In this document: piece after piece, positions 1 through 60,417 of the stretch
Layout: the number at the start of each line of letters is the position of its first letter
Position numbering within the stretch: position 1 is the first letter of the stretch
Assembly (NCBI GenBank): GCA_949130485.1
Contig: OX422183.1
Coordinates: 19,995,934 to 20,059,933, forward strand
Reading direction: 5' to 3'
Length of the DNA: 64,000 bases
From: Agelas oroides
Lineage: Eukaryota > Porifera > Demospongiae > Agelasida > Agelasidae
Program-made: the position numbers and the translations under genes
Notes under the pieces: model-generated
What the model saw: the letters and a program-made list of their open reading frames with translations, nothing else
What the model was told of the DNA's origin: nothing
Databases searched by the model: none

Positions 1-248
1 TCCCCTAAGTGAACTGCAGATGGCAGTCCCCCCTCCAGATGGCATTTACCCTCAATGTCAACAAAACCAGGATACTGTGACCACCATTACCATACCCAAT
101 GGTGTTGTCAATGTGACCTGCTACAGTGGGAGGCAGTTTGTGTCTGTGGCCTCTCATGTGTGTGATGAGGGCTACCAGCCTAATGCAACCTCCAGTGTAC
201 GAGTGTGCAGGGACAATGGAGTGTGGTCTGGAACTACCATAGCCTGTG
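1..248 (+). CDS. Gene 1, Sushi/CCP exon (5' edge cut by window)
   Basis: This exon encodes one Sushi (CCP) domain of a receptor whose earlier exons lie outside the window. About four bases of the exon are missing at the left edge, judged from the 252-base homologous exons of genes A, B and D. The frame contains ATG at base 20. The usual CCP signature is visible: Cys-Asp-Glu-Gly-Tyr, then Cys-x-Asp-Asn-Gly-x-Trp, then a final Cys. It ends at a good donor (TG|GTGAGT) in phase 1, which joins the transmembrane exon at 1777. No stop or frameshift is seen. Confidence 0.85.
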
Positions 249-1776
249 GTGAGTGGTTGACTTTGTAACCTTGTTCCCAGGCCTTCTCACTACCTTTGTA
301 TCCTGAATGTTGTAAGAATGCATCATGTGGTTATGGGATTCTGTGTCTCTTCTTATACTGTCACTTGATCACATCCGTACTTTGTATACTGTGGGTATAT
401 GTGTAGGTATCTCTAAACTGTTTATGTGATTTCAGATGATGAAGGTGTGCATATAACATTTATTTGCCCACCAGGGGATTCTTATCATCAGAGAGTTGGT
501 ATAGACTCTCTAGGTAGAGTTGGCATGGATCGCAATATATGTAATACTGAAGCAAAAAAACTTCTTTGCACCCAGTCTTGAGCCTTCATCTTTAAATGCT
601 TTTATAAACAATAAAAGTGCCCAAAAGTACTATGTATGTAAGACAGTCAAACACAAAATGTATGGTGGTGAAAGTGCCATTTTTCAACTTCACAACTTCA
701 AACCTAGACTTTGTTTTATGGATTTTGTCATGCAGCTATATAGCTCTGGAGAAAAATGCTATGTGACAATACTACGGAATGCTTACTGCTTGTGTTGTTG
801 TCATTGTATGGGTTGGGGAACCAGGATGTATGCACTAGGACACACGGAGCTACCAATGTCATCACGGTGCCATCGTATTACATATAAAACTTTACCAAGC
901 TTTCCTTCCCAACACAAACCTGAATAAAAACCTGTGCCACTATGACGTGGTGACGAAGTCACAAGTTCAAGGGCATTGTACCGTGATTGCACTGCAAGAA
1001 ATTAGTATAAGAAATTAGTATAACTGAAAAAAATGCAGTTTTATTTTAGTGTGATAAAAAATTTGTATAGGAATGGATATATATGGGGCTTTGTATAATG
1101 ACCTTCAACTTATATCATCCTACACTTTTCATACCTTTTAACATGCCATCCCAACTAGGCCTTGATGGATTATTCTTTTTTTTTACCCTATTATTCTATT
1201 CTTGTATTCTCAAAATTTTTACCTATTATTCTTATCATACTACCTAATATTCTTTTCATCATGCCTATTATTCCCAGTCTAAATACAATACATCGTGCAC
1301 CAAATAGAGCCTTGTTATATAGATAGCCCCATATACATATGGTATACTCACTTTGTACATTACTACACGTGACCTGAGTGGAAATGCACATGCACACTAC
1401 CCTCATCCCCCCCGGCTTCAATGTTTTCATTGGCGGCAGATGCCTGTGGGATGAGGCTACATGCACGCCTAGACTCAACGCCTAGACTCAACGCCAATTG
1501 CTGTTAGGTGTAGTCTACAAAACTAGGACCTATTATTCTTTTTTTATTACAATTTTTTACCTATTATTCTCGAATAATTCTCGATTCTTTTTGCTACCTA
1601 TTATTCTCAAAATTATGCTAGCATAATCCATCAAGGCCTAATCCCAACTTCTTTATTCTTTTTGACAGTCATGTTAAATAATTCTTGTGCTCCATTATTA
1701 TTGTCCACCAGGGGACTCTTAGGTGGTTCCTATTTCAACCAATGAGTTCATGACAATTTCACTTGTATTTCTGCAG
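249..1776 (+). other. Gene 1 intron between CCP and transmembrane exons
   Basis: This stretch is non-coding. Its 430-530 part matches the equivalent intron of gene B near 30,920-31,000, so it is an old intron shared by paralogs. It also carries the inverted-repeat element at 1156-1640. The open frames inside it have no recognisable domain. Confidence 0.7.
1156..1640. mobile_element. hAT-type MITE with perfect 8-bp target duplication
   Basis: The termini are inverted copies of TAGGCCTTGATGGATTAT. The element is flanked on both sides by ATCCCAAC (1148-1155 and 1641-1648), an exact 8-bp duplication as made by hAT transposases. The interior is AT-rich with repeated TATTATTCT-like words and no transposase, so it is non-autonomous. 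Confidence 0.8.
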
Positions 1777-2078
1777 AGAGTGAACCGACCACCCTCAGCA
1801 CAGGTGCTTCTGTGGGCATTACAGCAGTGGTGATTGCCACCATAGCACTTACTGTTGGATTCCTAGCTGGAGTTCTAGTCTACCACTGCATCAGCAACCA
1901 CAGATTCCAGAGCTCCAAGCCTAAGCCATCTTCCCACCAACACCAGCAGACAGTAGTACCACAGCGAGCTGGTCCAGAGTATGAGGAGGTGGTTGAACTG
2001 AAAGAGAACACGGCCTATGGTCCAGTGCAAAATATTGAGCTGAAGGCATGTGAAGCTTATGTGCCTGTGCAGCACTGA
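1777..2078 (+). CDS. Gene 1, transmembrane and cytoplasmic tail exon
   Basis: This is the last coding exon of gene 1. The acceptor is TTTCTGCAG. A serine/threonine-rich linker of about 12 residues leads to one hydrophobic helix, then a basic stop-transfer stretch (SNHRFQSSKPK) and a tail with EYEEV, AYGPV and AYVPV before the stop. The tail is nearly identical to those of A, B and C. The frame is open throughout, so gene 1 may be functional, but its 5' part cannot be judged here. Confidence 0.88.
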
Positions 2079-2671
2079 TTGTGATTACCAATATGAGCCT
2101 TTTCAGAATCAATAGCAAGATAAGCATTTCAGAGTTCTTATGAGTAGCATGAAGGTACTGGTCTTTTATGTATAGCTAGTTTAGTAGCACGAATTTTAGG
2201 ATACTTATGCTAGCGTTTTATATGCATAGTCTCACTTCATCATTTTTGATTTTTGAAGGCAGCAGGGTTGAATCAATGCATGTCAGAATAAGATGCTGTT
2301 TCCTTTTGCTGGCAATTGGTTTAGGAGTGTATCAGCAAATTGATAGGGAGCAGAGACAAACGGTGGAAACAGGATACTTGAATACACTGTTCAATGTGTA
2401 CATTTTACCAAACTACTGCCTCCTCACTTTGTGTAATTTGCAATGCAAGTGAAAATATTTCATCTCGGGGAGGTGGTCCAAATTTTTCGGAGGGAGTGCA
2501 TATTTTGCAGCTCCGGGGGTAACCAATTTACGGAGGTCCATTTTTACCATGACACCCTCTCGCACTGGTTTGGAACTACGGCACAAAAGGTCAAAGTTCA
2601 ATAATGATTTCATTCCACAAAACAAACTAACGCGGCAAACAATGGCTACGCTGGGTAATCTGGGCCACAGT
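2079..2671 (+). other. Gene 1 3' flank and gene A upstream region
   Basis: After the stop, the words TAGCTAGTTTAGTAG and GAATTTTAG recur at the same place after genes A and B, and in reverse after C. They are probably conserved 3' UTR. Bases 2338-2482 match 42,647-42,815, so this part is a dispersed repeat. No promoter motif could be assigned. Confidence 0.5.
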
Positions 2672-2696
2672 ATGTCGCTGCTACCGCGTCCCATTG
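2672..2696 (+). CDS. Gene A, leader exon 1 (start codon)
   Basis: The exon encodes MSLLPRPI and ends CCCATTG|GTAAGT in phase 1. I chose this ATG because the same ATG followed by x-L-L-P-R-P is kept in genes B and D. An in-frame ATG ten codons upstream (2642) is not conserved in D, where upstream frames hit stops. The exon was found only by comparing the three paralogs. Confidence 0.7.
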
Positions 2697-2771
2697 GTAA
2701 GTATAGTGTGTATAGCTTGCAAGTAAAGGTTGCGTCAAATTTTTGATGACAAGATATCTTGCTTACCACAG

Positions 2772-2813
2772 CTGCTGCTACTCTACTCTCCTTTACTATT
2801 CTACAGTATGCAG
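2772..2813 (+). CDS. Gene A, leader exon 2 (signal peptide core)
   Basis: This 42-base exon lies between CTTACCACAG and GTGAGA. With exon 1 it gives a typical signal peptide: an arginine in the n-region, a hydrophobic core (AAATLLSFTIL), and QYA-G as a likely cleavage site. The equivalents in B and D are 45 bases and encode the same ending. Confidence 0.72.
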
Positions 2814-4204: not shown

Positions 4205-4555
4205 GTAATGTTACTGGGCAGTTCACTGCAGCTCCCCCCACCTGTCCTGGTGATACCTTCATCTTCAGATGTACTGTTACTGGAGACATGAGTGGAATCA
4301 CCATCTGGAGAGCGGGTGTGGGCAATGAGTGTACTCTGGCACATAGCACACCAGGTGCCTCATCTACATGTGGAGTTGGCGGTGTCTTCACAACTAGATC
4401 TGGGACTGGGTTTGGAACAAATGCTACTTTCTTCTCATCAACACTGAGTGGCACTGGAACCCCTGCACTGGATGATACATTGGTTGAGTGCTTTGGACCA
4501 GCCATTTCCAGAGATGCTGGGAACAGGGCGGGAGGCAGCATACTCCAGATATTAG
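4205..4555 (+). CDS. Gene A, Ig-like exon (type 1)
   Basis: The exon is 351 bases, phase 1 at both ends, between ATACCAG and GTCAGT. The protein shows the Ig pattern of CPGDTFIFRC, a tryptophan in ITIWR, and a late cysteine in LVECFGPA. An extra cysteine pair lies between them. The exon is the same length as that of gene D and closely similar, but very different from the Ig exon of gene B. The frame is open. Confidence 0.82.
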
Positions 4556-12052: not shown

Positions 12053-12332
12053 ACCTCTCCTGTGTTGGCCTCTCTGAAGATGTCAGTGGAGCTGTGAATG
12101 TTACTGTGAGCTGGACACTGAGTGGTGGAGACAGTGCTGATTTCTACCTCATCAGCATTATCACCAATGCTACCCAGACCCCATATGGGGGACTTCTGAA
12201 CATCACCACTGCCAGTGTCACACTGACTGGTTTCATGACAGGCTATGAGTACAACATCACAGTACATGGTGTCAACTGTGGGAGTCAGGAGGGGAGGGAG
12301 GGTGAGCCCTTGACAATTAGCTACTCAGCAAG
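12053..12332 (+). pseudogene. Gene A, FN3 exon with lost acceptor and frameshift
   Basis: The protein (LSCVGLSEDVSGAVNVTVSW onward, ending YEYNITVHGVNCGSQEG) is clearly the FN3 domain found in B and D. The first 20 or so exon bases and the acceptor are absent, and I find no upstream AG that restores the frame. AGCT is inserted at 12,319-12,322, so joining to the next exon would put it in a frame that stops after about nine codons. Confidence 0.8.
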
Positions 12333-13997: not shown

Positions 13998-14092
13998 TCC
14001 CTGCAGCTCTCAGCAGCTATAACACCACCCTATCATACAACCAATCATCACGGAGACTCCTGTTCATCAACAGCACCTGGGATACTGTACCA
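13998..14092 (+). CDS. Gene A, first half of second FN3-like domain
   Basis: This 95-base exon lies between TTCTTACAG and GTAAGT, entering in phase 1 and leaving in phase 0. It encodes a short strand pair with RRLLFINSTWDTVP. The closest copy is gene D's. It is intact on its own, but upstream lesions in gene A prevent it being read in frame. Confidence 0.75.
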
Positions 14093-16447: not shown

Positions 16448-16685
16448 AGCTCAGTCGACCCAGCGGAGGCATGTCAAGGTCCAAGTGGGAACATTACACA
16501 ATACCAGATCAGATTCCAGACTGGATCTGTTGTGGTTACTGAGAATGTGAACATTGCCAGGTGCACAGTTCGGAGGTGTAGCCACACCTTTGAGCCACCC
16601 TCAAATCCTCCCTCAACCTATGACAGTGTGTCAGTGGCTGCTGAGAATGTGGTGGGAGTGGGAGCTGCAAGAACATGAACCATCA
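16448..16685 (+). pseudogene. Gene A, second half of FN3-like domain with premature stop
   Basis: The protein runs SSVDPAEACQGPSGNITQYQ through YDSVSVAAENVVGVGAARTstop. Compared with gene B, nine bases are missing after AGAACATG, which turns the cysteine codon into TGA at 16,676-16,678. Splice borders (CTCTCCAG, ATCA|GTGAGT) are kept. The stop removes the last four residues of this exon and everything downstream. Confidence 0.82.
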
Positions 16686-16986: not shown

Positions 16987-17295
16987 CTACAACTAACAAT
17001 ATCCTGAGAGTAGCAGTGGTGAATGTGAGCTCTCCTGCTAATGGTCAGCTGCAGTGTGCATTTCTATCTGGGTTCATTGGCTCTGCTCGCTGTACACTCA
17101 AATATGGGACTGACCCAACCTACATGAACCTGCCATACTCTGCTGAGTCCACTGAGACTGGTACAGCAGGGGACACTGTCAGTGTGGTACTGAGGGAGCG
17201 ACTGAACTCCTCAACTGTGTACTACTACACTGTCTCTGCAGTTAGTGGAGATATCACTGTGACAGTGCAAGGGACCTTCACAACACCTCAGTACA
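16987..17295 (+). CDS. Gene A, beta-rich ectodomain exon
   Basis: The exon is 309 bases, phase 1 at both ends (CATTCAG, GTAAGT). It encodes about 103 residues with two cysteines and strand-like stretches (VSVVLRERL, VYYYTVSAVSG) that resemble an FN3 or Ig fold, but I cannot assign a family. It is open, very similar to B and D, and downstream of the stop. Confidence 0.75.
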
Positions 17296-17760
17296 GTAAG
17301 TACTGTAGCTACAGTCAGAACCATAACGCTACACACTGGCCCCGCCCATGAAGAGCCCAGGCATGAGGCTAAGTTAGTACTACCGGATAGCAGGAAATTT
17401 TCTTGGGACAGAATTTTCATGAGAACAAACTTTGTGGAGTTCACTTGTCATATAGTTTAGAGAACTGTATAGGAGGTTCTCTCCCTTCACTGGCTAGCTC
17501 AAAGTAGTTGTATAATTCCATGGCAGCAAGCAGACTGTCATCTAAAGTTCACCAAAGACCAAATCCTTGAAGTCTATAAAGTTTGTCTGCGCCAACCATG
17601 CAGTATGTTGTGGAACAAACCTTTTTAGACCAGCTTACTAGCTTTTGCCACATACAGTGAAGTCTGTTGAAAACTAAGAATAGTGGTGGTGGCCTGGGAA
17701 TGAGATGTCACATCATGGCAACATACAATGTGGCCTTATATTTTGGTTCTTCCTGAACAG
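17296..17760 (+). other. Gene A intron before the CCP exon
   Basis: Bases 17,440-17,690 match 46,130-46,420 of gene D in reverse. No other feature is seen. Confidence 0.45.
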
Positions 17761-18012
17761 ACTGTCCTCTGAGTGAACTACAGGCAACAGGCCCCCCTCC
17801 AGATGATAACTACCCTCAATGTCAACAAGACCAGGATACTGTGACCTCCATTACCATACCCAATGGTGTTGTCAATGTGACCTGCTACAGTGGGAGGCAG
17901 TTTGTGTCTGTGGCCTCCCATGTGTGTGTTGAGGGTTACCAGCCTAATGCAACCTCCAATGTACGAGTGTGCAGGGACAATGGACTGTGGTCTGGAACTA
18001 TCATAGCCTGTG
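17761..18012 (+). CDS. Gene A, Sushi/CCP exon
   Basis: A 252-base exon, phase 1 at both ends (TGAACAG, GTGAGT). Six cysteines include the CCP set; CVEGY replaces the usual CDEGY. It is otherwise intact but lies after the premature stop. Confidence 0.82.
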
Positions 18013-21294: not shown

Positions 21295-21319
21295 ATGTTG
21301 CTCCTACCACGTCCCAATG
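21295..21319 (+). CDS. Gene B, leader exon 1
   Basis: Encodes MLLLPRPN and ends CCCAATG|GTAAGC, phase 1. An in-frame ATG 24 codons upstream (21,223) is possible, but the downstream ATG is the one shared with A and D and gives a normal signal peptide. Confidence 0.7.
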
Positions 21320-39878: not shown

Positions 39879-39924
39879 GTCTATTACCGGTTGTTGTACG
39901 AAAGATCTGCAGTGGCCCAGGGGT

Positions 39925-43432: not shown

Positions 43433-44509
43433 AGTTGTACCGTCTATGTGGGGCTTGCTCAGGCTCGCCCCAATTAGACTCAGTAGAGTTGTAAGCTACA
43501 TTATAATAGCCAGTAAAACGTTGCCTTTTGCTGTCCAATGCCCTTTTGACTACAAATAGTTTCCAAATGGGTGGGGCCAACTACTTCGGAGAACAACTGC
43601 ATTATCAAGAGGTAGCAGTACAGTTGACCTTTTGCCTTGATAGTAGCTTCTACTTGTATATCTCACTTGTCACTCATTTTAGGGATTGATGGAATGCTCC
43701 TTTGCCTGCATTTTCACTGCACGCTAACCCCGCCTAAACCACACTCCGTATGCTATGAACTGGTCACTTCACCATACTGGCAGATTGATCATGCTCACTT
43801 GAGGCAAGTTTGCTTCACAACAGTGATCATGCTGGAGTGACAACTGTGGTATAAATGCAAGTTGGCAGTTTACCAGACTCCATGTGTTTTCCTATAGTAA
43901 TTAGGTATAGAACATTTACTAGACTTTTATTTGCCAGGAAATGGCTCCATTTGTGTAGTGTAAAGCTGTCTTTCTAGGCAGTACGTATACAACACCACAG
44001 GAAACTGAGACTAATTACAGGACATAAAAAGATCCAGTGAATAGAGATACCCGTTGGTGAAGACCATTCAATAAGTGGGTGTGTACAGTAAAATATTTCT
44101 ATTAATCACAAAATTACTACAAAGTCGAAGGTTGGCATCAGAAAGAAGACGAACTAACAAAACAGCTATAGAGCATGGCCAGACTAGTCAAAACTAGCAA
44201 ACAGTGATGTTTTCACTGCCCACTGTAGCACATCACATTGACAACACCATTGGGTACCATATATAGGAATGTGATTGTCATATCCTCACTATGAACAGTT
44301 TTGATTAAAAATTAAACAGCTACACAATTGACATCGGCAGTAATGTCAACTGAATAACAAAAAATTCTTAACTAGCCAAAACTAGCAAAACAGTGTCTAC
44401 TAACGCTTTCACTACCCACTAGATCTTTGGAATGCTCGTGTGGCTAGTGCATGACTGTTGATGTACTCTGCACAGTCATACTAAAATGTTTACATATAAA
44501 GTGGAAAAA
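43433..44509. other. Gene D 3' flank
   Basis: No gene. 44,230-44,420 repeats AACTAGCAAA(A)CAGTG words. Sequence near 44,040-44,160 resembles 49,020-49,130 (a gene D intron). Confidence 0.4.
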
Positions 44510-44823
44510 TCAGTGCTGCACATGCCCATAAGCTTCATTGACTCTCAGTTCAATACTCTGTGCTGGCCCATAGGCCACATTCTCTCTCAATTCAATCTTC
44601 TTGTCAACAGGCACCTCCTCGTACTCTGGACCTGCCTGCTGCTGTTGGTGGGAAGATGACTCAGCCTTGGAGCCTTGTGATCGGTGCTTGATGATACAGT
44701 GATGAAGCAGAGCCCCAGCCAGGACTCCAACCACTAGTGCTATGGTGCCAGTGATTACTGCAAGTCCCACAGCAACACCTGTGCTGAGGGTAGCACCAGT
44801 GTTGAGACTGGCCGGTGCAGCAT
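44510..44823 (-). CDS. Gene D, transmembrane and tail exon
   Basis: Linker with ASLNTGATLSTG, helix VGLAVITGTIALVVGVLAGA, then HHCIIKHRSQGSK. The tail has PVDKK inserted after EYEEV, and IELRENVAYGPAQS followed by IELRVNEAYGHVQH. Acceptor CATGCAG. Confidence 0.86.
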
Positions 44824-47800
44824 CTGCATGAACACACTAATAATATTAATAAGCATTCAGTACCTCACGTAAAAGTCACCTGATTTAAAATCCCAGTAAA
44901 ATAGTAGCCTTGTTCCCAGGGCCCAACTGCCAAAACAACGCACTGGATCATCCATTTGAGCACTCTATAGCTGTTTTGGACTCCAGACATTAGAGTGATC
45001 GAAACTACTCATCTTGACTGGTAAGAAACTCGCTTTTAAGTTTAGTACGTACATATTAGAATATCGTCCACGCCTCCCCTATATCCACCTCGCATGCACT
45101 CACGTGATGAATGCTCCCAGGCCTTCCCCGTTTTTCACCGGTCTTCTGCTCCCATGTATAATTGTGAACACAAACGGAAGGTAAAAACAGGGGAGGCCTC
45201 CCCCCCTACGTCCACCTTGTGTCCACCTGACATCATTCACATGATGAAAGTTCCCAGGCCTTCCCTGTTCTTTGCCAGCCGTGTATTATTGTGACCGCAA
45301 ATGGGGGAGGCCTGGGAATGAGGCTAGTGAAATAGTATGTGTATGAGCACTAGCCTCGTTCCCAGGCCATTCCCGCCTCCAGTTTTTGATCGCTTGCAGT
45401 ATAAAACCGGAGGGGAAGGCCTGGGAGAAAGAGTCACGTGCGTAACATCAGGTAGACGTGAGGGTAGACATGAGGGGGGCGGTGCCCGATCGTTGTAACT
45501 CAAACTTTGCGTTGATCAGACTCGAGTCTACCAAACAACGAGCTGTATTGATGCTGTCTTTCAAACGTTACAGTCTCAAGTTCTTGGACAAGATATTACA
45601 AGAAGGACCTCGAGATTCTTCGTCGGGCACCGCCCCCCTCACGTCTACCCTCACGTCTACCTGACGTCACGCACGTGACTCTTTCTCCCAGGCCTTTCCC
45701 TCCGTTTTTATACTGCAAGCGATCAAAAACTGGAGGCGGGAACGGCCTGGGAACGAGGCTATATGAGCACCATGAATCTTGTTCTACAAAGTCAACCACT
45801 CACCACAGGCTATGGTAGTTCCAGACCACACTCCATTGTCCCTGCATACTCGTACACTGGAGGTTGTATTAGGCTGGTAGCCCTCATCACACACATGGGA
45901 GGCCACAGACACAAATTGCCTCCCACTGTAACAGGTCACATTGACAACACCATTGGGTATGGTAATGGAGGTCACAGTATCCTGGTTTGGTTGACAATGA
46001 GGGTAATTGTCAACTGGAGGGGGCCCTGCCGTCTGTAGTTCATTCAGGGGACAGTCTGTTGGGGAGGATAAATAAATAAGGTCACATTGTATATTGTCAT
46101 CATGTGACATCTCATTCCCAGGCCACCACCACTATTAGTTTTCAACCAAACTTTACTGTATGGCAAAAGCTAGTGAGCTGGTCTAATAAAGTTTGGTCCA
46201 CAACATACTGTATGGTTGGAACAGACAAACTTCCTAAGGATATTGTCTTTGGTGAACTTTAGATGACATTGCAATAGTCTGCTTGCTGCTATGGAATTGT
46301 ACAACTACTTTCAGCTAGCCAGTGAAAGGAGAGAACGCACAAGTCTACAGAAATGCAGCTGTCCACCATTACTCTCTCTAAACTGCATGACAAGTGCACT
46401 ACACAAATTTGTTCTCATGAAATTTTGACTAGAGATTCCTGCTATCTGAACAAACTTAGCCTGGGCTCTCTGTGGTATGAGGCTAGTATTTACTATACTG
46501 TGGAGTTGTGAAGGTCGCTCGCACTATCACAGTAACATCTCCACTAATTGTGGACACAGTGTAGTAGTACACAGTTGAGGAGTTCAGTCGTTCCGTCAGT
46601 ACCACACTGACAGTGTCCCCTGCTGTACCAGTCTCAGTGGACTCAGCAGAGTATGTCAGGTTCATGTAGGTTGGGTCAGTCCCATACTGGACTGTACAGT
46701 GAGCAGAGCCAGTGAACCCAGACAGAAATGTGCACTGGAGTTGAGCATCAACAGGAGAGCTGACATTCACAACTGCTACCTTTAGGACATTGTTATTCGT
46801 ACCTGTATATGAACACAAATAACATTATATGAATGAAAAGAAACCTTGAAAAAGTCAACCCTAGAATCTGGGCCCAGTATGAGACTACCTTTGACTGGAA
46901 AGAACACTAAATACTCTTTGGAAATTGTATATCTCCAGCATAAGCACCCTTTGAACAAGCAACTTCTTATTATCATCTCACAAGAAAGGTGAGGTGATGA
47001 GAACTTTGAGAACTCGAGGAGACTGTATATACCTCTGAATAGAAGGAAATCTGTATCATACCTTTTAATCATGCACCTCAGAAATGGTTCAAGATGAACA
47101 CTAGTAAATAACATGGTGTTCTTCACCATCACACAAGATTGCAGTCCATCAATGTTCAACTCACTGATGGTGTGTGTTGTACATGTTCTTGCAGCTCCCA
47201 CTCCCACCACATTCTCAGCAGCAACTGACACTCTGTCATAGCTTAAGGGAGGATTTGAGGATGGCTCAAAGGTGTGGCTACACTTCCTAGCTGTGCACTC
47301 AGCAATGTTCACATTCTCAGTATTTACAACAGACCCAGTCTGGAATCTGATCTGGTGCTGTGTGATGTTCCCACTTGGGCCTGGACATGCTTCCCCTGGG
47401 TCAACTGGGTTCTGGAGAGAGGTATGATACTTAAAGCAAAGTTGATATTGCACTGTATGCGTGTGCTTGCACTTCAGCTTGTATGCGTGTGCTTGCTGAG
47501 ACTTTCACACTAAGCGTGGACGCTTCACACTCATGCTTCACGCACATGCTTCATGCACATGTACGTTCATTCCAAATTTAACAGTAGTGTGGGCGATGGA
47601 ACGTTAGTGCTGGGCCCAGAAGCGAGGCTACGCCGTTGAAAGTATCGTACAGTCAACAATTATGAATCTCACGAGTTGTGGCAGTGCTGTTCGCAATCAA
47701 CCCCACATTGGTAACTAGTATACCCAGCAGGTAGACAAACGTCGCAATGAGAACGGTGACTTAGCTATATATATATCTGCACACTTGCACCCAAGACTGC

Positions 47801-50800
47801 ATGTTTGAACTACATTCTCTTGTAATGTATATATGCTGCAACGCATACATGTCAGTTTGTTTGTCAGACTCGACGTAGCACCCAAAACTGGTCTCAGAAA
47901 CAATCTCAGAGCATATATTTTCCAAAAATTTCCTGGGGGAGCATGCCCCAAGAACCCCCTAGTTACACATGCACAATCTGAGGTCAACCCCCAGGATATA
48001 AGAATACCCCCATTGGCTTAACCAGCCTACGGGCTTGGATAATGCAAGGGCCAACCTAGCCACTGAAAATCCACCATGCAAACACTTAGCTAGAGCTTCT
48101 TTACTTATATCCCTCCCTCACTTGAAATTACCTATAGATATAGTGGTTACTATAGGTATATCCCTCCCTCACTTTACACAATGTTGTCAGGCATAGTGGT
48201 GTCAGGCACACCAATGTAGAAGACCGCCCCCATGGGAGGAATATATAATCAATTACCTTTGGCAACACTACTGCAAAAGAAAGATGTGAGCAACATTCAT
48301 ATAAATATTGCCTAGGTAATGTATTATAAGTATATCATGACAGTGGCAGAGGAAGATTCTTCAGAATGGGGGTGGTTGAGTATAATGAGTGCATGTGTAG
48401 GCACACTGGGGGGTTCCCTCCAGAAAATCTGAGATTGCTTCTGAGGCCATTTTTGTGACAAAACAGCAACCATTTTAAGTGTTGCCTTTCCATATCACAA
48501 CAGTGACACAACCCACTTGTTAATTTGAGATGCCACTACGGGGAAACTGTAACCAAGTTATAATGCGTGTGACACCTGTTTAGAATTTTATGATGCTTAC
48601 TGGTACAGTATTCCAGGTGGTGTTGATAAACAGAAGCCTTCTTGATGACTGGTCAAATGATAGGGTGATGTTACAGCTGCTGGGAACTGCAGGGACTGTA
48701 AGGAAACATGGATTGACTAAAAGTGTAGTTTAATGTGAGTCACTGCAAGGTTCAAGGCAAGAGTAAGGCAATAGTGAACAAGCTGAAGCTGCATGACGTG
48801 CATGACGTTATTACTGTGTCATTCTTTGTCCTCAAGACGAGACTGTCTAAACCAAACAGAGACTTGCATAGGTTGTCAGATATATTGGTAGCTAGTCAAT
48901 GTAGAAAATATGCTGGAAAGTGATGTAAAAAGGGCCGATATAGCACAAATTATTATTCTTCATGCTCGTTCAGTAGCTGTACATATAATTCAGCTACCAG
49001 TTTCATAGCAAACACAAGCACTTGTTCCATCACAAGTTGGTGAAGACCATTTAATTAGTTAGTTGTATATATACAGCAAAATCTTTCTAAAGTCACATTA
49101 ACTACAAGTTAAGAAGGCAAACTAATAAATGACTGCATGTAGAGCTCTGCATGGCCAGCGGTACTTCTAACGAACAGCCCTCATAAAGAAGACACCGTAG
49201 TTGTGGAATTCATGAAACTAGAATGACCTGTTTGCGGAGACAACACTGGCTGGGACAAGATAGGATGGTAAAGACATAGACATTAGCCAGGATACAAAAG
49301 GCATGACAAATGTATGTTTGTTGCCCAAATAAGTAATGAGGTTCAATGTCACACTAACATTGCATGGTTGCAAATAAGTACTGGGATCAAAGCTGGAATG
49401 TTTGTTCTATACTCATTAAAATCACCTCCAGTTCCTCTGCTATGATATCACCACGCACTCAATACTGTCAACATAGTCCGTACTCAGAACAGTTAGGCAG
49501 CCTTAACTATACAAATCATACGTCCATCAACTTTTTACATAGTAAATTTAACTGTAAATATCTCATGAACCCATGGCAGTATGAACATGGGGTCTGCAAC
49601 AATGACAACAATGATGCTCCCCAATTCTGTAAATGAAAACAATTTGTTGTCATGGCAACTAATTAACAGCAGTCACGCTCGTGTAAACAAACCATTTGTA
49701 GCAATAAATACAGCAAAATGCGGAACTGAAGACGTAGCCTGAGAGCTAAGCCACTGTAGCTACTATTACTACTGGTCATGGTCTAGCAGAAACACAGTGG
49801 CATGAAACAGCAATCCTTTTTATGGCTGCTATATAATTGAAAAGAGGCGAAAATTTGGGCATATTCGGGTAGCCCTTAACATTTAAACATTAAGGCTTTT
49901 GCAACACAGCATTAACAGCACAAATGTCACTGCGTTATGACAACTTCAACTCCTCCTGTACACAGAAATGCCATCAGATCTTGGTTCCAAGGCTGGCGAG
50001 TGTTCCGCATAAACCGCCAAAGATGATCGGTCATCGTCGCTCGAAATGACTTGAGCTTTACTTCTGTCTTCTGCTCGCAGAAACACGCAGCTCTCGGTCT
50101 CAGTGATATCCCTTCTGAAGTTCGGACATACCTACTTCACAATCAGCGCTAAAACAAAGCTTTACAGAAAAGACTAACGGTCAGAATAACGATGACAAAG
50201 CTAATAACTTACACTCGGCAGCCATTCAATTTCCGTAAACTATTGCAATATCCTCGTGTACTTCCGTGTTACGAATAATAAATTTAAGGCCGCCTTAATC
50301 ATTCTGAGTAAGTTAAAATGACTACCCTAAGTTTACTTTGTGCCTACCTTGCTGAGTAATTGTTAGGGGCTCACACTCTCTCCCCTCCTGACTCCCACAG
50401 TTGACACCACGTACTGTGATGTTGTACTCATAGCCTGTCATGAAACCAGTCAGTTCTTGCTGTGTGACACTACCAGTGGTGATATTCAGAAGTCCCCCAT
50501 ATGGGGTCTGGAGAGCATTAGTGGTAATGCTGATGAGGTAGAAATCAGCACTGTCTCCACCAATCAGTGTCCAGCTCACAGTGACATTCACAGCTCCACT
50601 GACATCTTCAGAGAGGTCAACACAGGAGAGGATGGGGGCAGAGGGGGGACCTGAAGAAATGAAGGATTACCATGAGTCCCATAATGTTCAAACCCTCCAA
50701 ATGCTTTCCTAATTTACTGTCTACAGTACAGTGTTTTTATATCAACAAAACATCATATACACTAGTGCTTACATGCATATACATGCTAAATTGAATGCTG

Positions 50801-53800
50801 CATGTATGTACATGCCTCACACCCATTTCTTTTTAGGAAACAAGTATAGGTATGAAGCCATGTACATGCCAACAATTATCACATTTTGTTCCTAGGCATA
50901 TACCTATAGTGCAAAGATACTAAAAATTAATGCCTGATGCAAAGCCACTTTAGTTGGGTGATTGTTATTCTCCTCAGGCAAACAGATCCTTAGGTAAGTG
51001 GCACAAGAGGAAATTTCCATTCGTTCAGTCCACTACAAACCTCACTCAACTGTCCAGTAAGTTCTCGTCACCAGCAATGTCCAGTGATGGGCCTCCAGCG
51101 AAGCAACATTGAACTTGCAGAGCACATTTGTCAACCTTGTATCAACAAGCAGTTAAATTGACCAGGTCAAAGCATAAGCAACAGGCCACTGCTGGTGGAA
51201 AAGTAAGGACACTCGATGTATTGTTTTTTTCACCAAAAACTTCATCATCAACAGACAATTTTGATGTCAACTCTTGACTTTTAGTGTAAATCGTCCCGTG
51301 CACTGTAAAAAGTGAGCAGCTCAACCAGAATGACGATAAACTGACGCTAAAGAAAAGCCAGGCCTAGATGTTATACAAAGTCACCACTGCACAGGACATG
51401 CGCATTCAGCTTCCTTATTGCATTATGCATTAACTGAATATCAGTGTTCCAATTTGATTTGCTGTTCACATCACTGCACTTTTCCTGGGGAGTTTTACGC
51501 ATCATTCTAGTCAATCATGGATTGTAGAATGAGTTAGTTAGCCATAACGTCACACCCTGGCTCTCACACTTCATCACTAGGGTATGTTTACAAGGATAAC
51601 CATTAGACAAGTCACTTATTGAAAACAGGAGCAACACACTCCCTTGTTCACAACATAATGATATTCTACTGCAATTCTGAGCTTCCAGAAGTGTCACCAA
51701 ACTCTACTGTTAGTTGCACTTACATATACATGTACACATGCAGAACCCCATATTGTGTAGACGTTTCATATGGACACATGCAGATAGTGTAATGGTAGAC
51801 ATACCACAATATCATAGAGTGTTACTGACCTACTATCTGGAGTCTAATGCCTCCAACCATGTTTCCAGCATCTCTGGAAAAGGCTGGTCCAAAGCACTCA
51901 ACCAGTGTACCATTCCGTACAGTGGTTGCAGTACCACTCAGTGTTCACAACATAATGAAATTCTATTACAATTCTGAGCTCCCTATACATCTAGCTCTTC
52001 TGTTAGTTTCACTATGTATACTGTAGTCTCGCGAAAGAGCGCCCACTCACAAAAGAGTGCCCACCCCCTACTTTTGGCCCATTTTTCTGTATAGGGTCAA
52101 CGTTTACTCAAATCAGCGCCCACCCTAGAGTGAGCTTCGTGTGGAGTTTGAGAAGCACAGCCTCAAGCACTATGCATATCTGAGGTAAGAAACTTTGTGT
52201 TATGCTTCACCAAAGGCATCTGTGCATAGACGGACGTAATTAATGTGGTTCACACCGCGACCTACACCATGCTCACTGTGACGTGGTACCATTCAGTGTG
52301 CTGTGTGCCATCAGGACTCGACTTCCAAGCCACTGGTGGTTCCATTGTACGTTATTGTTTGTCCAATTATTTGCTTCGAGGGCATCCAGTCGCTGTAAAC
52401 ATGCATGATATGAGCACTCTTTCATAGTTAAATGCGGAACCACTCGAAAGAGCGCCCACCCCCCTCGTTGGCAGACTTTTAAGGTGCTCCGCCCTCTTTC
52501 GCAAGACTACGGTGAATGCAGAACCCCATAATTGTGTACACGTACACATGCAAATAGTACCAGAATATCATGGAGTGTTACTGACCTATTATCTGAAGTC
52601 TACTGTTTCCAACCATGTTCCCAGCATCTCTAGACAAGGCTGGACCAAAGCACTCAACCAGTGTACCATTCAGTGCAGGGGTTGCAATGCTGCTCAGTGT
52701 TGATGAGAATAAAGTAGCACTTGTTCCAAACCCAGTCCCAGGTGTGACTGTGAAGGCACTGCCAGACCCACAAGGACCAGGGGCACTTGCTGTATTATGT
52801 ACCAGTGAACACTCACCACTCCCAACCACTCTCCAAATGGTGATCCCATTCAGGCCCCCAGTAACAGTACATCTGAAGGTGAAGGTATCACCAGGACAGG
52901 TGGAGAGAGCTGCAATGAACTGTCCAGTGATATTCCCTGGAGAGAAAAGTGGAAATGTGCATGAAAAACATTTACCTCCTCTCCCTGGGTACACAACTGT
53001 ATGTTTGATTCTGTTTATCATGTTGGTCATGATCACCAAGCTCACTATAACCATGTGCAAGTAACACAAACACATAGTGGTGTAAGAAACATGTGTTATG
53101 ACAAAGGTGAAGCTCAGTTGGCATAGATGTGCCATCTCAAATACAACAACAGACAATAGGTCACTCCAGGCCGTACTTCAGTTTCTGTTCCTCTGCCTCC
53201 ACCCTTCTGCACTGTTCCAATTTATGAGCATCCCCAGTATAATGAGCATATGCAAAAACTTTACACCAGAATCCAAAGCTTCATGGTCAACTTTGTGTAG
53301 ATAAGAGTTGTAATGTCAGCCTTCACTCTACCTGCTTTGATATGTTTATATAGAGAAGGATGGAAATATTATATTGTCGCTTGTGTGCTTCAAAGTAAAA
53401 TAGTACCATAATCTCCTGAAAATAGGCCCACCCTCGAAAATAAGCCCACCCCCCTTTTTTGAATGAAGTTGTTGCAAAGGGTGCTTTCCTCTCGAAAGTA
53501 TGCCCACCTATTTATGCCGCAGTACATGCTGTTATGGCAAGAAACACCAAGGAAGCAGCACTGTGCAAGAGGAGAGGCTAACAAATGAAGGCAGACACAA
53601 TTTGCTGTTATTGCATAATAAAACAAGCGCATGACAAAAGAGGCATTGCAGAATCACTGCATAACTAGGGCTAGACTAACTGTGTATGAGGTGGGCGTAT
53701 TTTCAAGAGAAATATCACACAACTCTAGAAAATACGTCCACCCCCCATTTTGAGGAGCCAGTCCATCGCCCATGGGCATATTTCAAGAGATTGCAGTAAT

Positions 53801-54314
53801 GATATTTTGGGGCGCATAAAGTGATGTGTTTGTTTGTACTGGCAAGTACTTACATTTACACTGCTACTTGTGTGCCCATGCACCCAAGTGCATAGTAGTA
53901 GGGGATTCCTAGGACCAGAAACAGCAGTATAACTTGGAATATTGCCTTGTACTGTACAAGTTACTTACAGTTCTGCTGGATTTTACAGCTTACTAAGATG
54001 TGGTTGGCTACATAATTATTATAGCCATTGCGGCTGTTTCCTGGATGAGAAAGCAGGCTAACCCGAGAAACTAGAGTATGCATGAATATGAGACTACACT
54101 ATACACATCATATGATACGATCTGACTCGCATCACATGCAGCATAGCTCTCTAGCCTCACCTGCATACTGTAGAACAATAAAGGTGATTAGAGCAGTAGC
54201 AGCAGCTGTGGCATAAAGCAAGATATCTTGTCATCAATTGACGCAACCTTTAGTGGATGTGAAGGGAGGTTATACAAACTACTACTTACCACTGGGACGC
54301 GGTAGCAGCGGCAT
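44510..54314 (-). CDS. Gene D: intact Ig/FN3/CCP membrane receptor (646 aa)
   Basis: Nine minus-strand exons give one open frame: signal peptide 1-23, Ig-like 24-140 (type 1, as gene A), FN3 141-241, second FN3-like 242-355, beta-rich 356-458, Sushi/CCP 459-542, then helix and tail to 646. Tail tyrosines are Tyr610 (EYEEV), Tyr627 (AYGPA) and Tyr641 (AYGHV); this is the most diverged tail. The role is inferred as a type I cell-surface receptor or adhesion protein, as for gene B. All introns have GT/AG ends with the shared phase pattern. An extra, truncated Ig exon copy lies in the Ig-FN3 intron. No transcript evidence is available to me. Confidence 0.8.
44824..45803 (-). other. Gene D last intron
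   Basis: Contains two more decayed TAGCC-end elements around 44,905 and 45,110-45,330 and the foldback at 45,351-45,761. No gene. Confidence 0.5.
45351..45761. mobile_element. 411-bp TAGCC-end foldback with 9-bp duplication
   Basis: Arms of about 135 bases begin TAGCCTCGTTCCCAGGCC. TATGAGCAC flanks both sides exactly. The centre (about 135 bases) is GC-richer and not palindromic. Confidence 0.85.
45804..46055 (-). CDS. Gene D, Sushi/CCP exon
   Basis: 252 bases between CCCCAACAG and GTGAGT. Intact CCP with CDEGYQPNTTSSVRVCRDNG and final TIAC. Phase 1 at both ends. Confidence 0.86.
46056..46493 (-). other. Gene D intron between beta-rich and CCP exons
   Basis: Aligns in reverse with gene A's intron at 17,440-17,690. 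No other feature. Confidence 0.5.
46494..46802 (-). CDS. Gene D, beta-rich ectodomain exon
   Basis: 309 bases (ATATACAG, ATA|GTAAAT), phase 1 both ends. Same cysteine pair and VYYYTVSTISGDV ending as the paralogs; open. Confidence 0.82.
47165..47411 (-). CDS. Gene D, second half of FN3-like domain
   Basis: 247 bases, phase 0 in and phase 1 out (TCTCTCCAG, ATCA|GTGAGT). EACPGPSGNITQHQIRFQ and ECTARKCSHTFEPSSNPP are visible, ending ARTCTTHTI. Two codons shorter than gene B. Confidence 0.83.
47412..48600 (-). other. Gene D intron inside the second FN3-like domain
   Basis: 47,460-47,560 has a GCGTGTGCTTG / CACGCACATGCTTCA repeat patch. 47,880-48,040 is a fragment of the hAT-like element. 48,060-48,560 aligns in reverse with gene A's intron near 14,335-15,200. 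Confidence 0.5.
48601..48695 (-). CDS. Gene D, first half of second FN3-like domain
   Basis: 95 bases (CCTTACAG, CCA|GTAAGC), phase 1 to 0. Encodes VPSSCNITLSFDQSSRRLLF then INTTWNTVP; like gene A. Confidence 0.78.
48696..50347 (-). other. Gene D intron after the FN3 exon
   Basis: 49,020-49,200 matches gene A's intron. The remainder, including GC-richer 49,940-50,250, shows no gene I can support. Confidence 0.4.
50348..50650 (-). CDS. Gene D, FN3 exon
   Basis: 303 bases (TTCTTCAG, CAAG|GTAGGC), phase 1 both ends. FN3 with NVTVSWTLIGGDSADFYLIS and YEYNITVRGVNCGSQEG. Open. Confidence 0.85.
51830..51945 (-). pseudogene. Truncated duplicate of the gene D Ig exon
   Basis: The last 116 bases of the Ig exon with the donor side (LVECFGPAFSRDAGNMVGG) are repeated about 0.75 kb after the full exon. 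The upstream two thirds and acceptor are missing, so it cannot be spliced as a domain. Confidence 0.75.
52019..52513. mobile_element. MITE (TACTGTAGTCTCGCGAAAGA ends)
   Basis: Inverted ends share GTAGTCTNGCGAAAGAG and GCGCCC. Similar in layout to the TACCGTA elements. It separates the truncated and full Ig exons. Confidence 0.7.
52586..52936 (-). CDS. Gene D, Ig-like exon (type 1)
   Basis: 351 bases (TCTCTCCAG, ATAG|GTCAGT), phase 1 both ends. CPGDTFTFRCTVTG, ITIWRV and TLVECFGPALSRDAG mark the Ig-type cysteines and tryptophan. Open. Confidence 0.82.
52937..54160 (-). other. Gene D intron after the leader
   Basis: Contains the TACCGTA-type MITE. 53,960-54,120 resembles 2860-3000 near gene A's leader. 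No gene. Confidence 0.45.
53404..53798. mobile_element. Decayed TACCGTA-type MITE
   Basis: Reverse copy of 4842-5251 with several changes in the ends (TACCATAATCTCC, GAGATTGCAGTA). Confidence 0.7.
54161..54205 (-). CDS. Gene D, leader exon 2 (signal peptide core)
   Basis: 45 bases between TATGCCACAG and GTGAGG. Encodes AAATALITFIVLQYA. Confidence 0.72.
54290..54314 (-). CDS. Gene D, leader exon 1
   Basis: Encodes MPLLPRPS, donor CCCAGTG|GTAAGT. In-frame TGA codons lie upstream, which fixes this ATG as the conserved start. Confidence 0.75.
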
Positions 54315-56349: not shown

Positions 56350-56666
56350 TCAGTGCTGCACAGGCGCATAAGCTTCACATGCCTTCAGTTCAATATTTTG
56401 CACTGGACCATAGGCCGTGTTCTCTTTCAGTTCGACCACCTCCTCATACTCCGGACCAGCTCGCTGCTGTGGTACTACTGCCTGCTGCTGTTGGTGAGAG
56501 GATGGCTTAGGTTTAGAGTTCTGCGATCGGTGCTTGCTGATGCAGTAGAACAAAAGACTTCCAGTCAGGACACCAGCCAGGACTCCAATGACAAGTGCAA
56601 TCGTACCAGTAACTGCTGCTGTAACCTCCACAGCAGGACAAGTGCTGCAGGTAGTCTGTACACTAT
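56350..56666 (-). CDS. Gene C, transmembrane and tail exon
   Basis: Linker SVQTTCSTCPAVE, helix VTGTIALVIGVLAGVLTGSL, then SKHRSQNSKPKPSS and the standard tail with EYEEV, AYGPV and AYAPV. Open, but not reachable in frame. Confidence 0.82.
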
Positions 56667-56776: not shown

Positions 56777-57026
56777 CACACACTATGGTAGTTCCAGACC
56801 ACGGTCCATTGTCCCTGCACACTCGTACACTGGTGGTTGCATTAGGTTGGTAGCCTTCATCACACACATGGGAGGCCACAGACACAAACTGCCTCCCACT
56901 GTAGCAGGTCACATTGACAACACCATTGGGTATGGTAATGGAGGTCACAGTATCCTGGTCTTGTTGACATTGAGGGTAGTTGTCATCTGGAGGGGGCTGT
57001 TGTCTGCAGTTCACTTAGGGGACAAT
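56777..57026 (-). pseudogene. Gene C, CCP exon with 2-base deletion
   Basis: Length is 250, not 252. The C-tract after ACAACAG lacks two bases, and the normal frame then meets TGA within a few codons. The rest of the CCP is readable in the shifted frame. Confidence 0.8.
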
Positions 57027-57252: not shown

Positions 57253-57567
57253 TGTACTGTGGTGTCATGAAGGTTGCTTGCACTGTCACAGTGACATCAC
57301 CACTAACTGAAGATACAGTGTAGTAGTACACAGTTGAGGAGTTCAGTCGCTCCCTCAGTACCACACTGACAGTGTCCCCGGGCCCTGCTGTACCAGTCTC
57401 AGTGGACTCAGCAGAGTATGGCAGGTTCATGTAGGTTGGGTCAGTCCCATACTGGACTGTACAGTGAGCAGAGCCACTGAACTTAGATAGAAATGTGCAC
57501 TGTAGCTGAGCATCAGTAGGAGAGCTCGCATTCACAATTTCTCCAGTTAGGAGGTTGTTGGCTATGC
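57253..57567 (-). CDS. Gene C, beta-rich ectodomain exon
   Basis: 315 bases (TGATGCAG, ACA|GTAAGT). Carries two extra codons (PG) in TETGTAGPGDTVSVV and a diverged start (IANNLLTGEIVNASS). Confidence 0.78.
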
Positions 57568-58067: not shown

Positions 58068-58305
58068 TGATGGTTTGTGTTGTACATGTTCTTGCAGCTC
58101 CCACTCCCACCACATTTTCAGCAGCCACTGACACACTGTCATAACTTGAGGGAGGATTTGAGGGTGGCTTAAAAGTGTGGCCACACCTTCCAGCTGTGCA
58201 CCTGGCAATGTTCACATTCTCAGTAGCCACAACAGACCCAATCTGGAAACTGATCTGGTACTGTGTGATGTTCCCAGTTATACCTGGACATGAGTTCACT
58301 GGGTC
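58068..58305 (-). CDS. Gene C, second half of FN3-like domain
   Basis: 238 bases (TCACACCAG, ATCA|GTGTGT), phase 0 to 1. NSCPGITGNITQYQISFQ and RCTAGRCGHTFKPPSNPP; five codons shorter than gene B. Confidence 0.78.
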
Positions 58306-58938: not shown

Positions 58939-59030
58939 TGGCACTGTATTCCAGATGGTGTGAATGGACAGTAGCTCTGTTGAGTGGCTATAGGTGACAG
59001 TACTTGCACAGTTGGCAGGAAGGTAAGGTA
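58939..59030 (-). CDS. Gene C, first half of second FN3-like domain
   Basis: 92 bases (CCTTACAG, CCA|GTAAGT). Encodes LPANCASTVTYSHSTELLSI then HTIWNTVP; related to gene B's exon. Confidence 0.75.
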
Positions 59031-59844
59031 CTGTAAGGGTGGGAGATATCATGTGGTGATACACAGATTAACATAAAAGAGAAGTTTTGTTGGATCCTCT
59101 AAGGTCGCATCAAGGGCATGTCAAGCTACCAAAGCTACATGGTAAAAGTGATCTTCTGCATGAGTGTATCGTAGTGATCTATGCAAGTGGTCGATGCACC
59201 TTTAGTCACGTAAATCATTGTTAAATGAAGCATACATCTGTCAAAGATGAATTGAAGATTGCAACTTGGTTGCAAGTAGCTGGTCTCCTTCATCCTTTCC
59301 TCATTATTGATAGATGAACACAGAAAGATATACCATAAAATTAATGCAAGTAGCAAAAGCAACAGAAAGTTGCTTGCTGTAGTTACATGCAATCCCTCAC
59401 ATGGAGTACTCCTAATCATGAACTTGCTGATACATACACAAAAGTGACAATGGTACAAGTAAGATTGTCAGACCTACACCATTTGCAGTGAGTGGGTAAA
59501 TCAGGTGTGGGATCAAGGACAGTGCTAACTATGTATGTGTATAAACCACAATGCATATACACGCTTGATCATGCAGACTTCAGTATTTTCTATAGTTACA
59601 ACTGTTGAGCGGCGGTTTTTGGCAAAACTACGCCAAGTGAATAATGCTGCAACCATGTGTAGGTCACATACAACTATGAAGACAAGTGCTTCAAGAAAAT
59701 TTATGGATCGGTCAGACCATGAAATGCAATATCAGTTTGAAGTGGCCTAAACAACCATCTTATAGAGCAACATTATGAGACCATCATGCACTCAATAGCG
59801 TAATGACTTAAAAACTTGACCTTCATTGCCAACAATCAATATAC
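59031..59844 (-). other. Gene C intron after the FN3 exon
   Basis: Small frames on both strands without domains; nothing else seen. Confidence 0.4.
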
Positions 59845-60151
59845 CTTGAGGTCTGATTGTCAGGGGCTCACTCTCATTTCCCTCCTGACTCTCACATTTG
59901 ACTCCACGTACTGTGATGTTGTACTCATAGCCAGCCATGAAACCAGTTAGTTCGTGCTGTATGACACTGGCAGTGGTGATGTTCATGCAGAAGTCCTTGA
60001 TATGGGGCCCAGGGATTGTTGGTGGTAATGTTGATGAGGTATAAATCAGCACTGTCTCCACCACTCAATGTCCAGCTCACAGTGACATTCACAGCTCCAC
60101 TGACATATTCAGAGAGGCCAACGCAGGAGAGGGTAGGGACAGAGGGGGGAC
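59845..60151 (-). pseudogene. Gene C, FN3 exon with 4-base insertion
   Basis: 307 bases where paralogs have a multiple of three. After CAAGGACTTCTG four bases (CATG, or TGCA) are added before AACATCACCA, shifting the frame. Both halves are otherwise good FN3 sequence (SWTLSGGDSADLYLINITTN; YEYNITVRGVKCESQEG). Confidence 0.82.
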
Positions 60152-60210
60152 CTGGAGAGACAGGTATTACACAGACTACAAACATATAAGTTCGCTTTTC
60201 AATTCCACAG

Positions 60211-60417
60211 ACTATACTCAGCACGGGTGCTATAGTAGTCATTGCAGTTGGTAGCATCGTTGCACTCATCATTGGAGTTCTCCTGTTCTACTTCATCAGC
60301 AAGCACTGCATGGTTCCAGAGCTCCCAGGCCAAGACATCCTCCCACCAACAGCAGCAGGCGGGTCCATGCATTGCATGAGGAGATTCGTGGACCTGTGCA
60401 GACTATTGAGTTGAAGC
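60211..60417 (+). pseudogene. Stray transmembrane exon, head-to-head with gene C
   Basis: After a good acceptor (TTCCACAG) the plus strand reads LSTGAIVVIAVGSIVALIIG and VLLFYFISKH, as in the receptor helix, then frameshifts. Later fragments (GGACCTGTGCAGACTATTGA) match the tail. AATAAA follows at 60,462. It is a remnant of a sixth receptor gene in the opposite direction. Confidence 0.78.

What the first reader, a model, noticed from the sequence alone, without database searches (positions are those of the whole stretch)
1..60417. Clustered Ig/FN3/CCP receptor family with intact and broken members
Seen: five gene copies plus one stray exon share one exon plan; B and D are open from signal peptide to stop, A and C carry clear lesions, gene 1 is cut by the window. 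Known: birth-and-death clusters of single-pass Ig-type receptors with tyrosine tails underlie recognition systems such as the Hydractinia Alr cluster. Inference: this could be a recognition receptor cluster in an early-branching animal.
Basis: partly seen in the sequence, partly recalled or inferred. Interest (0 to 1): 0.85.

Follow-up and report, generated by a model that had tools for sequence, protein, structure and literature searches.

The report
Mosaic receptor gene cluster in animal
The window is a small slice of a very large cluster of cell-surface receptor genes on one animal chromosome, in which the middle parts of the proteins stay alike between copies while the outer tip and the inner end differ, a pattern expected of recognition receptors.

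Summary
Five copies of a nine-exon, single-pass receptor gene lie in the window: signal peptide (2 exons), Ig-like, FN3, FN3 split in two, FN3-like, CCP, TM plus tyrosine tail. Two copies (B, C in my labels) are open from ATG to stop, 652 and 646 aa; two (A, D) are broken; one is cut by the window edge. In the window's own genome (259 Mb, unnamed) the exons recur in high number, almost only on contig C1: tail 134 of 136 matches, Ig 77 of 77, exon 7 108 of 108.

New result: exon-by-exon mosaicism. In ten copies, introns define four lineages, yet exons 4, 6, 7, 8 are about equally alike within (median dS 0.16) and between lineages (0.18), while exons 3 (Ig), 5 and 9 differ more between lineages (0.19 against 0.60). 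Best reading: exon-sized exchange homogenises the stalk, while tip and tail escape it. Recognition is inferred from anatomy, not shown. Species, expression, polymorphism and fold could not be tested. Closest in working: the Hydractinia Alr complex; membership is not claimed.

The parts
1..248 (+). gene 1, exon 8 (CCP), cut at 5' end by the window
1777..2078 (+). gene 1, exon 9 (TM + tyrosine tail)
2672..2813 (+). gene A, exons 1-2 (signal peptide; 2672-2696, 2772-2813)
4205..4555 (+). gene A, exon 3 (Ig-like)
12054..12329 (+). gene A, exon 4 (FN3-1), broken: acceptor region lost, frame changed near the end; ends approximate
13998..14092 (+). gene A, exon 5 (first part of FN3-2)
16448..16685 (+). 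gene A, exon 6 (rest of FN3-2), in-frame stop
16987..18012 (+). gene A, exons 7 (FN3-like, 16987-17295) and 8 (CCP, 17761-18012)
18770..19089 (+). gene A, exon 9 (TM + tail)
21295..21449 (+). gene B, exons 1-2 (signal peptide; 21295-21319, 21405-21449; exon 2 donor GTGAC is weak)
24092..24439 (+). gene B, exon 3: rare Ig type, 18-29% aa identity (B and E) to the common type in five copies, 3 matches in the genome search
26119..26427 (+). gene B, exon 4 (FN3-1)
28182..28276 (+). gene B, exon 5
29555..29807 (+). gene B, exon 6
29995..30303 (+). gene B, exon 7 (FN3-like; Pfam Pur_ac_phosph_N below cut-off)
30521..30772 (+). gene B, exon 8 (CCP/Sushi)
31564..31886 (+). gene B, exon 9 (TM, tail with YEEV, YGPV, YVPV)
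54161..54314 (-). gene C, exons 1-2 (signal peptide)
52586..52936 (-). gene C, exon 3 (Ig-like, common type)
51830..51945 (-). relic: 3' part of a second Ig exon inside gene C
50348..50650 (-). gene C, exon 4 (FN3-1)
48601..48695 (-). gene C, exon 5
47165..47411 (-). gene C, exon 6
46494..46802 (-). gene C, exon 7
45804..46055 (-). gene C, exon 8 (CCP)
44510..44823 (-). gene C, exon 9 (TM + tail, class shared with gene H outside the window)
44219..44256 (-). relic: 38 bp of a CCP exon
59845..60151 (-). gene D, exon 4, frame broken; no exons 1-3 found upstream
58939..59030 (-). gene D, exon 5
58068..58305 (-). gene D, exon 6
57253..57567 (-). gene D, exon 7
56777..57026 (-). gene D, exon 8, frame broken
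56350..56666 (-). gene D, exon 9
60206..60414 (+). stray tail exon, head-to-head with gene D

Best explanation
The window is a slice of a chromosome-scale cluster of single-pass cell-surface receptors. SHOWN from sequence: nine exons, phase 1-1 cassettes except a split FN3; intact and broken copies; the family sits almost only on contig C1; ten copies fall into four lineages by introns; exons 4, 6, 7, 8 are about equally similar within and between lineages, while exons 3 (Ig), 5 and, less cleanly, 9 (TM/tail) differ more between lineages. INFERRED: exon-sized exchange between paralogues (gene conversion or unequal crossing-over) keeps the FN3-CCP stalk alike, and the Ig tip and tail escape it and diversify. 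INFERRED: the receptor is exported by the signal peptide, the Ig domain at the tip binds a ligand, and repeated YxxV-type tyrosines in the tail, once phosphorylated, bind SH2 proteins; the many tips make the cluster a repertoire for recognition (of microbes or of other individuals).
For: Gene models: 22, 24, 66. Domains: 15, 68, 116, 117. Within the window, B-C synonymous differences: exon 3 48.7/77.7 and exon 5 15.3/23.3 against 47.0/272.5 in exons 4, 6, 7, 8 (p 3e-14 and 2e-6). Intron flanks of exons 3-7 in every pair with B or D score below the 99% null level, while A-C exceeds it at 7 of 12 flanks of exons 3-8; B exceeds it at introns 1-2 and, with gene 1 and D, after exon 8. Simulation finds homology with power 1.0 at d<=0.28 and 0.93 at 0.5. 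Sister gene E outside the window: 6.6 of B's 9.3 kb of exon-masked DNA aligns with E, none of C's, yet E-C exons 4 and 8 are as similar (92%, 92.5%) as E-B (93%, 92%). Ten copies: core exons within lineage median dS 0.16 (n=23 exon pairs), between 0.18 (n=100); exons 3, 5, 9 within 0.19 (n=15), between 0.60 (n=72). Genome counts: 93-96, 103-105; at least 29 loci, the broken A among them, with Ig, exon 7 and tail in order on one strand. Tail: three tyrosines in B and C; of the 30 best tails, L030 and L031 hold ten AYG repeats each in the stretch read.
Against: No transcripts, binding data or alleles. The Ig fold is supported weakly (best Pfam 5.6e-4 in one of 30 copies; best PDB profile E 0.017); AlphaFold could not be run. 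No canonical ITAM/ITIM by regex in B or C. A Sawyer-type run test on core exons alone was not significant (p 0.066), and lower identity at exon edges was equal in the A-C control, hence uninformative: I have no direct conversion tracts. Core-exon similarity is slightly lineage-dependent in exon 7 (p 0.049). The saturated exon-3 values all involve B or E; the 8 between-lineage pairs without them have dS 0.26-0.64. Exon 9 does not follow the intron lineages (A-C 0.58, D-J 0.49 within). The ten copies were chosen, not random: the window's five plus five neighbours with clear core exons, which biases core exons towards similarity; of 44 CCP matches 24 are of another kind at 32-47% identity.
Confidence: 0.62

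Rival explanations
1. Ordinary adhesion or matrix-receptor family: tandem duplicates under purifying selection, with no recognition repertoire; the tips differ because the copies have different structural partners or tissues.
For: FN3/CCP stalks are common in adhesion proteins (recalled); pooled dN/dS of exons 4-9 is 0.34-0.60 for all ten pairs in the window, broken exons left out; no positive selection shown. One search shows the exon-4 FN3 also in a tandem array of about 36 copies, as in a long structural protein.
Against: Copy number, broken copies, the tyrosine tail, and tip divergence with stalk homogeneity fit receptors better.
Confidence: 0.25
2. No conversion: the lineages arose recently by exon shuffling, a young FN3-CCP block being inserted between older tips and new introns. 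(This rival and the next concern how the mosaic arose; they do not exclude the recognition or adhesion readings.)
For: The cassettes are phase 1-1, so exon swaps keep frame; B-type Ig is rare and its remotest kin lies 7.5 Mb away; exon classes recombine in D (exon 5 with J, exon 9 with I).
Against: Exon 5 lies between two core exons in the same order in the copies read, and introns on both sides of exons 4-7 are unrelated between lineages; several precise swaps per gene would be needed instead of repeated local exchange.
Confidence: 0.2
3. Synonymous sites in exons 4, 6, 7, 8 are under constraint (splicing or codon signals), which alone keeps dS low between old lineages.
For: Between lineages mostly exons, not introns, are conserved.
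Against: Exons 3 and 5 of the same genes have between-lineage medians of 1.41 and 0.90 with the same splicing needs, and within-lineage dS of core exons is no lower than of exons 3 and 5 (123).
Confidence: 0.07

Closest known systems
Hydractinia allorecognition complex (Alr1, Alr2 and relatives; [quoted passage not shown]
   Same: Clustered family on one genomic interval, single-pass Ig-superfamily receptors, intact genes beside many presumed pseudogenes (passages in PMC11067881); [quoted passage not shown]
   Different: Here one Ig-like domain with extra conserved cysteines, then three FN3-type units and a CCP; no ITAM by regex; polymorphism and function unknown; no sequence comparison with Alr was possible.
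Botryllus fester
   Same: Likely cell-surface receptor with one SCR/sushi exon and a TM exon; diverse by alleles, copy-number haplotypes and splice variants (passages in PMC3549757).
   Different: No Ig or FN3 exon mentioned in the passages seen; here a large array and a tyrosine-repeat tail.
Expanded sponge SRCR/FN3/Ig domain repertoires (Stylissa, Amphimedon, Aplysina, Dysidea)
   Same: Large FN3/Ig/Sushi receptor repertoires, some regulated by microbial signals, including a 'FnIII domain and Sushi repeat-containing gene' (passages in PMC4772301; PMC6208332).
   Different: No SRCR domain seen here; exon-level evolution not described in the passages seen; phylum of the window not established.
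CEACAM family of mammals
   Same: Concerted evolution by gene conversion with escape of some members (title and start of abstract of PMC7042247, search listing).
   Different: Different domains and animals; escape there is of a paralogue, here of single exons; no homology tested.

Membership tests
Immunoglobulin superfamily | Ig domain by curated profile | tested here: inconclusive
   window exons: no Pfam hit; of 30 genome copies 12 hit Ig_3 (best 0.017), 8 ig (best 5.6e-4), 2 I-set at E<=1 (117); cut-offs not reported in that mode
Immunoglobulin superfamily | B-strand Cys, C-strand Trp about 12 residues on, F-strand Cys | tested here: met
   C22, W34, C95 invariant in 30 of 30 copies aligned, the best 30 of 77 matches; the motif itself is recalled. 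Rare B type not included in this alignment
Immunoglobulin superfamily | Ig fold | not tested
   Structure prediction was busy at all 20 tries
FN3 protein | PF00041 above cut-off | tested here: met
   exon 4 of B 32.3 bits against 25 (68); C below: 16.2 in the full protein, 21.3 as exon alone
CCP/Sushi protein | PF00084 above cut-off | tested here: met
   B 26.4, C 23.9 bits against 20.7 (68)
Hydractinia Alr family | sequence homology to Alr1/Alr2 | not testable with these tools
   no cnidarian sequence collection on hand
Hydractinia Alr family | highly polymorphic extracellular domain controlling fusion | not testable with these tools
   one assembly only
ITAM/ITIM receptors | Yxx[LI]x6-12Yxx[LI] or [ILVS]xYxx[ILV] in the tail (consensus recalled) | tested here: not met
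   absent in B and C; YxxV-type repeats instead; the other tails were not tested

The most novel reading that the evidence does not exclude
This is the recognition locus, possibly the allorecognition locus, of an early-branching animal: a multi-megabase cluster on one chromosome in which gene conversion keeps a common stalk while old, rare and common Ig-tip types and tyrosine-repeat tails are kept apart and recombined, so that copies, broken ones included, act as a reservoir of exons.
Probability: 0.2. Interest if true: 0.9.

Novelty: new variant of a known kind. Interest (0 to 1): 0.62.

Why it matters
If the reading holds, it gives an animal receptor cluster in which the exons that homogenise and the exons that escape can be read directly, so the long-standing question of how invertebrates build recognition repertoires without somatic rearrangement becomes testable: sequence exon 3 in several individuals and ask whether the Ig types segregate, and compare expression of B-type and common-type tips in contact or infection assays.

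Tried and rejected
Rejected: artefact or chance repeat (exon-limited identity, consistent phases). Rejected: single-copy or purely local family. Tested and not supportive: Sawyer run test on core exons alone (p 0.066; on exons 4-9 and on exons 8-9 it gave 0.0005, but these mix exon classes); edge-versus-middle identity (lower at edges also in the A-C control); raised dN/dS in the A-C Ig pair (p 0.086). Led nowhere: prokaryote and viral collections with exon 7 (none confirmed of 30 and 38 pattern matches); PDB with the window-only Ig profile (six antibodies at E 0.45-2.5) and with exon 7 (three at E 0.17-0.5); Pfam on ten other open frames (one DDE_3 above cut-off). A phylum test with PF00112, as a lead to silicatein, did not complete. 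Literature: 10 searches; 10 papers seen by passages only, one look-up not held; in these I saw no description of an exon-mosaic Ig-FN3-CCP cluster, which is not proof that none exists.
Full report
WHAT IS THERE. The window holds five copies of one gene plan on both strands. The plan is nine exons: 1-2 signal peptide, 3 an Ig-like domain, 4 FN3, 5 and 6 one FN3-type domain split by a phase-0 intron, 7 an FN3-like domain, 8 a CCP/Sushi domain, 9 transmembrane segment and tail. All other internal junctions are phase 1, so exons 2, 3, 4, 5+6, 7 and 8 are interchangeable cassettes. B (652 aa) and C (646 aa) are open with GT/AG introns throughout; each has one strongly hydrophobic stretch before the tail, 22 cysteines and three tail tyrosines. 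A and D are broken and gene 1 is cut. For D no Ig or signal exon was found in the window, and in the genome searches the nearest minus-strand Ig match upstream of it lies at C1:20.35 Mb. Three relics of single exons lie between or inside the genes.

DOMAINS. Pfam puts exon 4 of B (fn3) and exon 8 of B and C (Sushi) above the curated cut-offs; fn3 of C is below. Exon 7 resembles the N-terminal domain of purple acid phosphatases, below cut-off; that this domain is FN3-like is recalled. Exons 5 and 6 hit nothing in Pfam, so 'FN3' for them is my reading of the sequence. The Ig call needed more copies: 30 genome copies (the best 30 of 77) share C22, W34, C55 and C95 without exception; scanned singly, 12 of 30 hit Ig_3, 8 of 30 ig and 2 of 30 I-set at E<=1, and five other families one copy each; the profile's 7 PDB matches at E<=1 are four Robo1/Robo2 chains (best E 0.017) and three antibody chains. 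No fold could be predicted.

THE FAMILY IN ITS OWN GENOME. After ten unanswered tries the window's genome could be searched: 259,295,671 bases in 141 contigs, the window being C1:19995934-20059933. With single exons as queries: tail of B 136 matches, 134 on C1; Ig of C 77, all on C1; Ig of B only 3, all on C1; exon 7 of B 108, all on C1; CCP of B 44, 43 on C1, of which 18 are close (78-100%), 24 lie at 32-47% and 2 are short pieces; exon 4 of B 118, 115 on C1; exon 6 of B 83, all on C1. Counts are lower bounds where candidates exceeded those scored. Chaining 76 of 80 Ig, 98 of 108 exon-7 and 119 of 136 tail matches by order, strand and distance gives at least 29 loci with Ig, exon 7 and tail, and 67 exon-7 copies with an Ig exon upstream; 66 of the 98 exon-7 copies lie at 18.9-21.5 Mb and 16 at 27.8-29.5 Mb. 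Whether these loci are intact genes was checked only for the window's copies; in E, G, H, I and J the matched exons hold no stop.

THE MOSAIC. In the window, silent divergence differs sharply between neighbouring exons of the same pair: B-C dS is 0.23 in exon 4, 1.57 in exon 5, 0.16 in exon 6; Fisher tests. Intron flanks of exons 3 to 7 score below the 99% null level (373 random flank pairs, at least one of them a true overlap) in every pair with B or D, although exon dS of 0.11-0.28 (exons 4, 6, 7, 8) would leave neutral introns easily alignable (43; power 1.0 at d 0.28). To test this I fetched five neighbours (E, G, H in part, I, J; 101, 108). Exon-masked comparison sorts the ten copies into {A,C,H}, {B,E,gene 1}, {D,I,J} and {G}; alignments of up to about 0.46 kb between groups remain, probably signal-peptide introns and 3' ends. 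Against these groups: exon 4 within 0.14 (n=2), between 0.17 (n=13); exon 6 0.16 (7), 0.18; exon 7 0.17 (7), 0.23, p 0.049; exon 8 0.17 (7), 0.16; but exon 3 0.17 (3), 1.41, p 0.008; exon 5 0.05 (3), 0.90, p 0.014; exon 9 0.32 (9), 0.45, p 0.035. Pairs share sequences, so these p values are descriptive. Two saturated exon-3 pairs were set to dS 3; without B and E the 8 between-lineage exon-3 pairs run 0.26-0.64. Exon 9 follows other groupings (C with H, D with I, A nearer to B and gene 1 than to C), so tails have probably moved between lineages. Caution: the five neighbours were picked for clear core exons near the window, and elsewhere other CCP and exon-7 classes exist.

HOW IT WORKS. Shown: architecture, copy number, intact and broken members, and exon-level mosaicism. 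Inferred with good support: recurrent exchange among paralogues limited to exons, since flanking introns are too different to pair; no conversion tract was shown directly (61, 73). Inferred with moderate support: a surface receptor with the Ig tip as binding site and a tyrosine tail as signalling end; tails repeat a unit around AYGPV, three tyrosines in B and C, and two of the 30 tails read (L030, L031) with ten AYG each in the stretch read (119). No canonical ITAM or ITIM was found in B or C (66). Speculative: which ligand. B and its sister E carry an Ig type that is 18-29% identical to the common type and whose only other match is at 12.5 Mb (95, 112, 114), next to a weak exon-6 match in the same orientation (E 3.7e-4; 105), so the type is probably old in the family and not a foreign insert.

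COMPARISON. What it works like: the Hydractinia Alr complex, which has clusters of Ig-type receptors, presumed pseudogenes and proposed donors among paralogues (passages in PMC11067881 and PMC3276163). Whether it is a member: not testable here; domain plan and tail differ. Botryllus fester has a sushi exon and a TM exon (passages, PMC3549757). Sponges are reported to have large FN3, Ig and Sushi receptor repertoires (passages, PMC4772301 and PMC6208332), and in one Amphimedon grafting study no significant enrichment of cell-adhesion or aggregation-factor genes was seen (passage, PMC5450542); but the window's phylum is unknown.

VERDICT. The added value is the demonstration that the window is part of a chromosome-scale family with homogenised middle exons and more private tips. 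Novelty: new variant of a known kind. Interest 0.62.

Noticed in passing
G000:C1:19620108-19637366 (-), outside the window: About 36 tandem copies of the exon-4 FN3 unit (81-90% identical to B's exon 4) in 17 kb, some inside open frames of 433-741 aa: a long FN3 protein or an exon reservoir (counted by eye).
   Followed up: no
G000:C1:20548338 and 20766346, 20571716 and 20789694; 28894285, 29221568 and 29295860: Groups of matches repeat at constant offsets (about 218 kb; 327 and 74 kb) with equal or nearly equal scores: recent segmental duplications or uncollapsed haplotypes.
   Followed up: no
window 37191-38341 and 38730-39879, with a third copy at 40678-41465: A 1.15-kb inverted repeat, 98.8% identical, containing a 178-bp tandem repeat.
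   Followed up: no
window 33930-36999 and 61794-63936: Segmental duplication in pieces, 81-97% identical, of the region downstream of B, now beside the stray tail exon and the truncated 5' end of D.
   Followed up: partly
window 8949-9518 and 9945-10217 (+): FLYWCH zinc-finger and DDE_3 endonuclease fragments above Pfam cut-offs inside an intron of A: probably remains of a DNA transposon.
   Followed up: no
window 7766-7839 (-), 27893-28024: tRNA-Glu-like sequence with related copies: probably a tRNA-derived SINE.
   Followed up: no
window 28930-29347: 13 copies of a 32-bp minisatellite in intron 5 of B; its pieces also match one place in sister gene E.
   Followed up: no
G000:C12, C2, C8, C19, C18, C1: The genome holds very many FN3 domains in other clusters (150 matches, 150 of 1900 candidates scored).
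   Followed up: no
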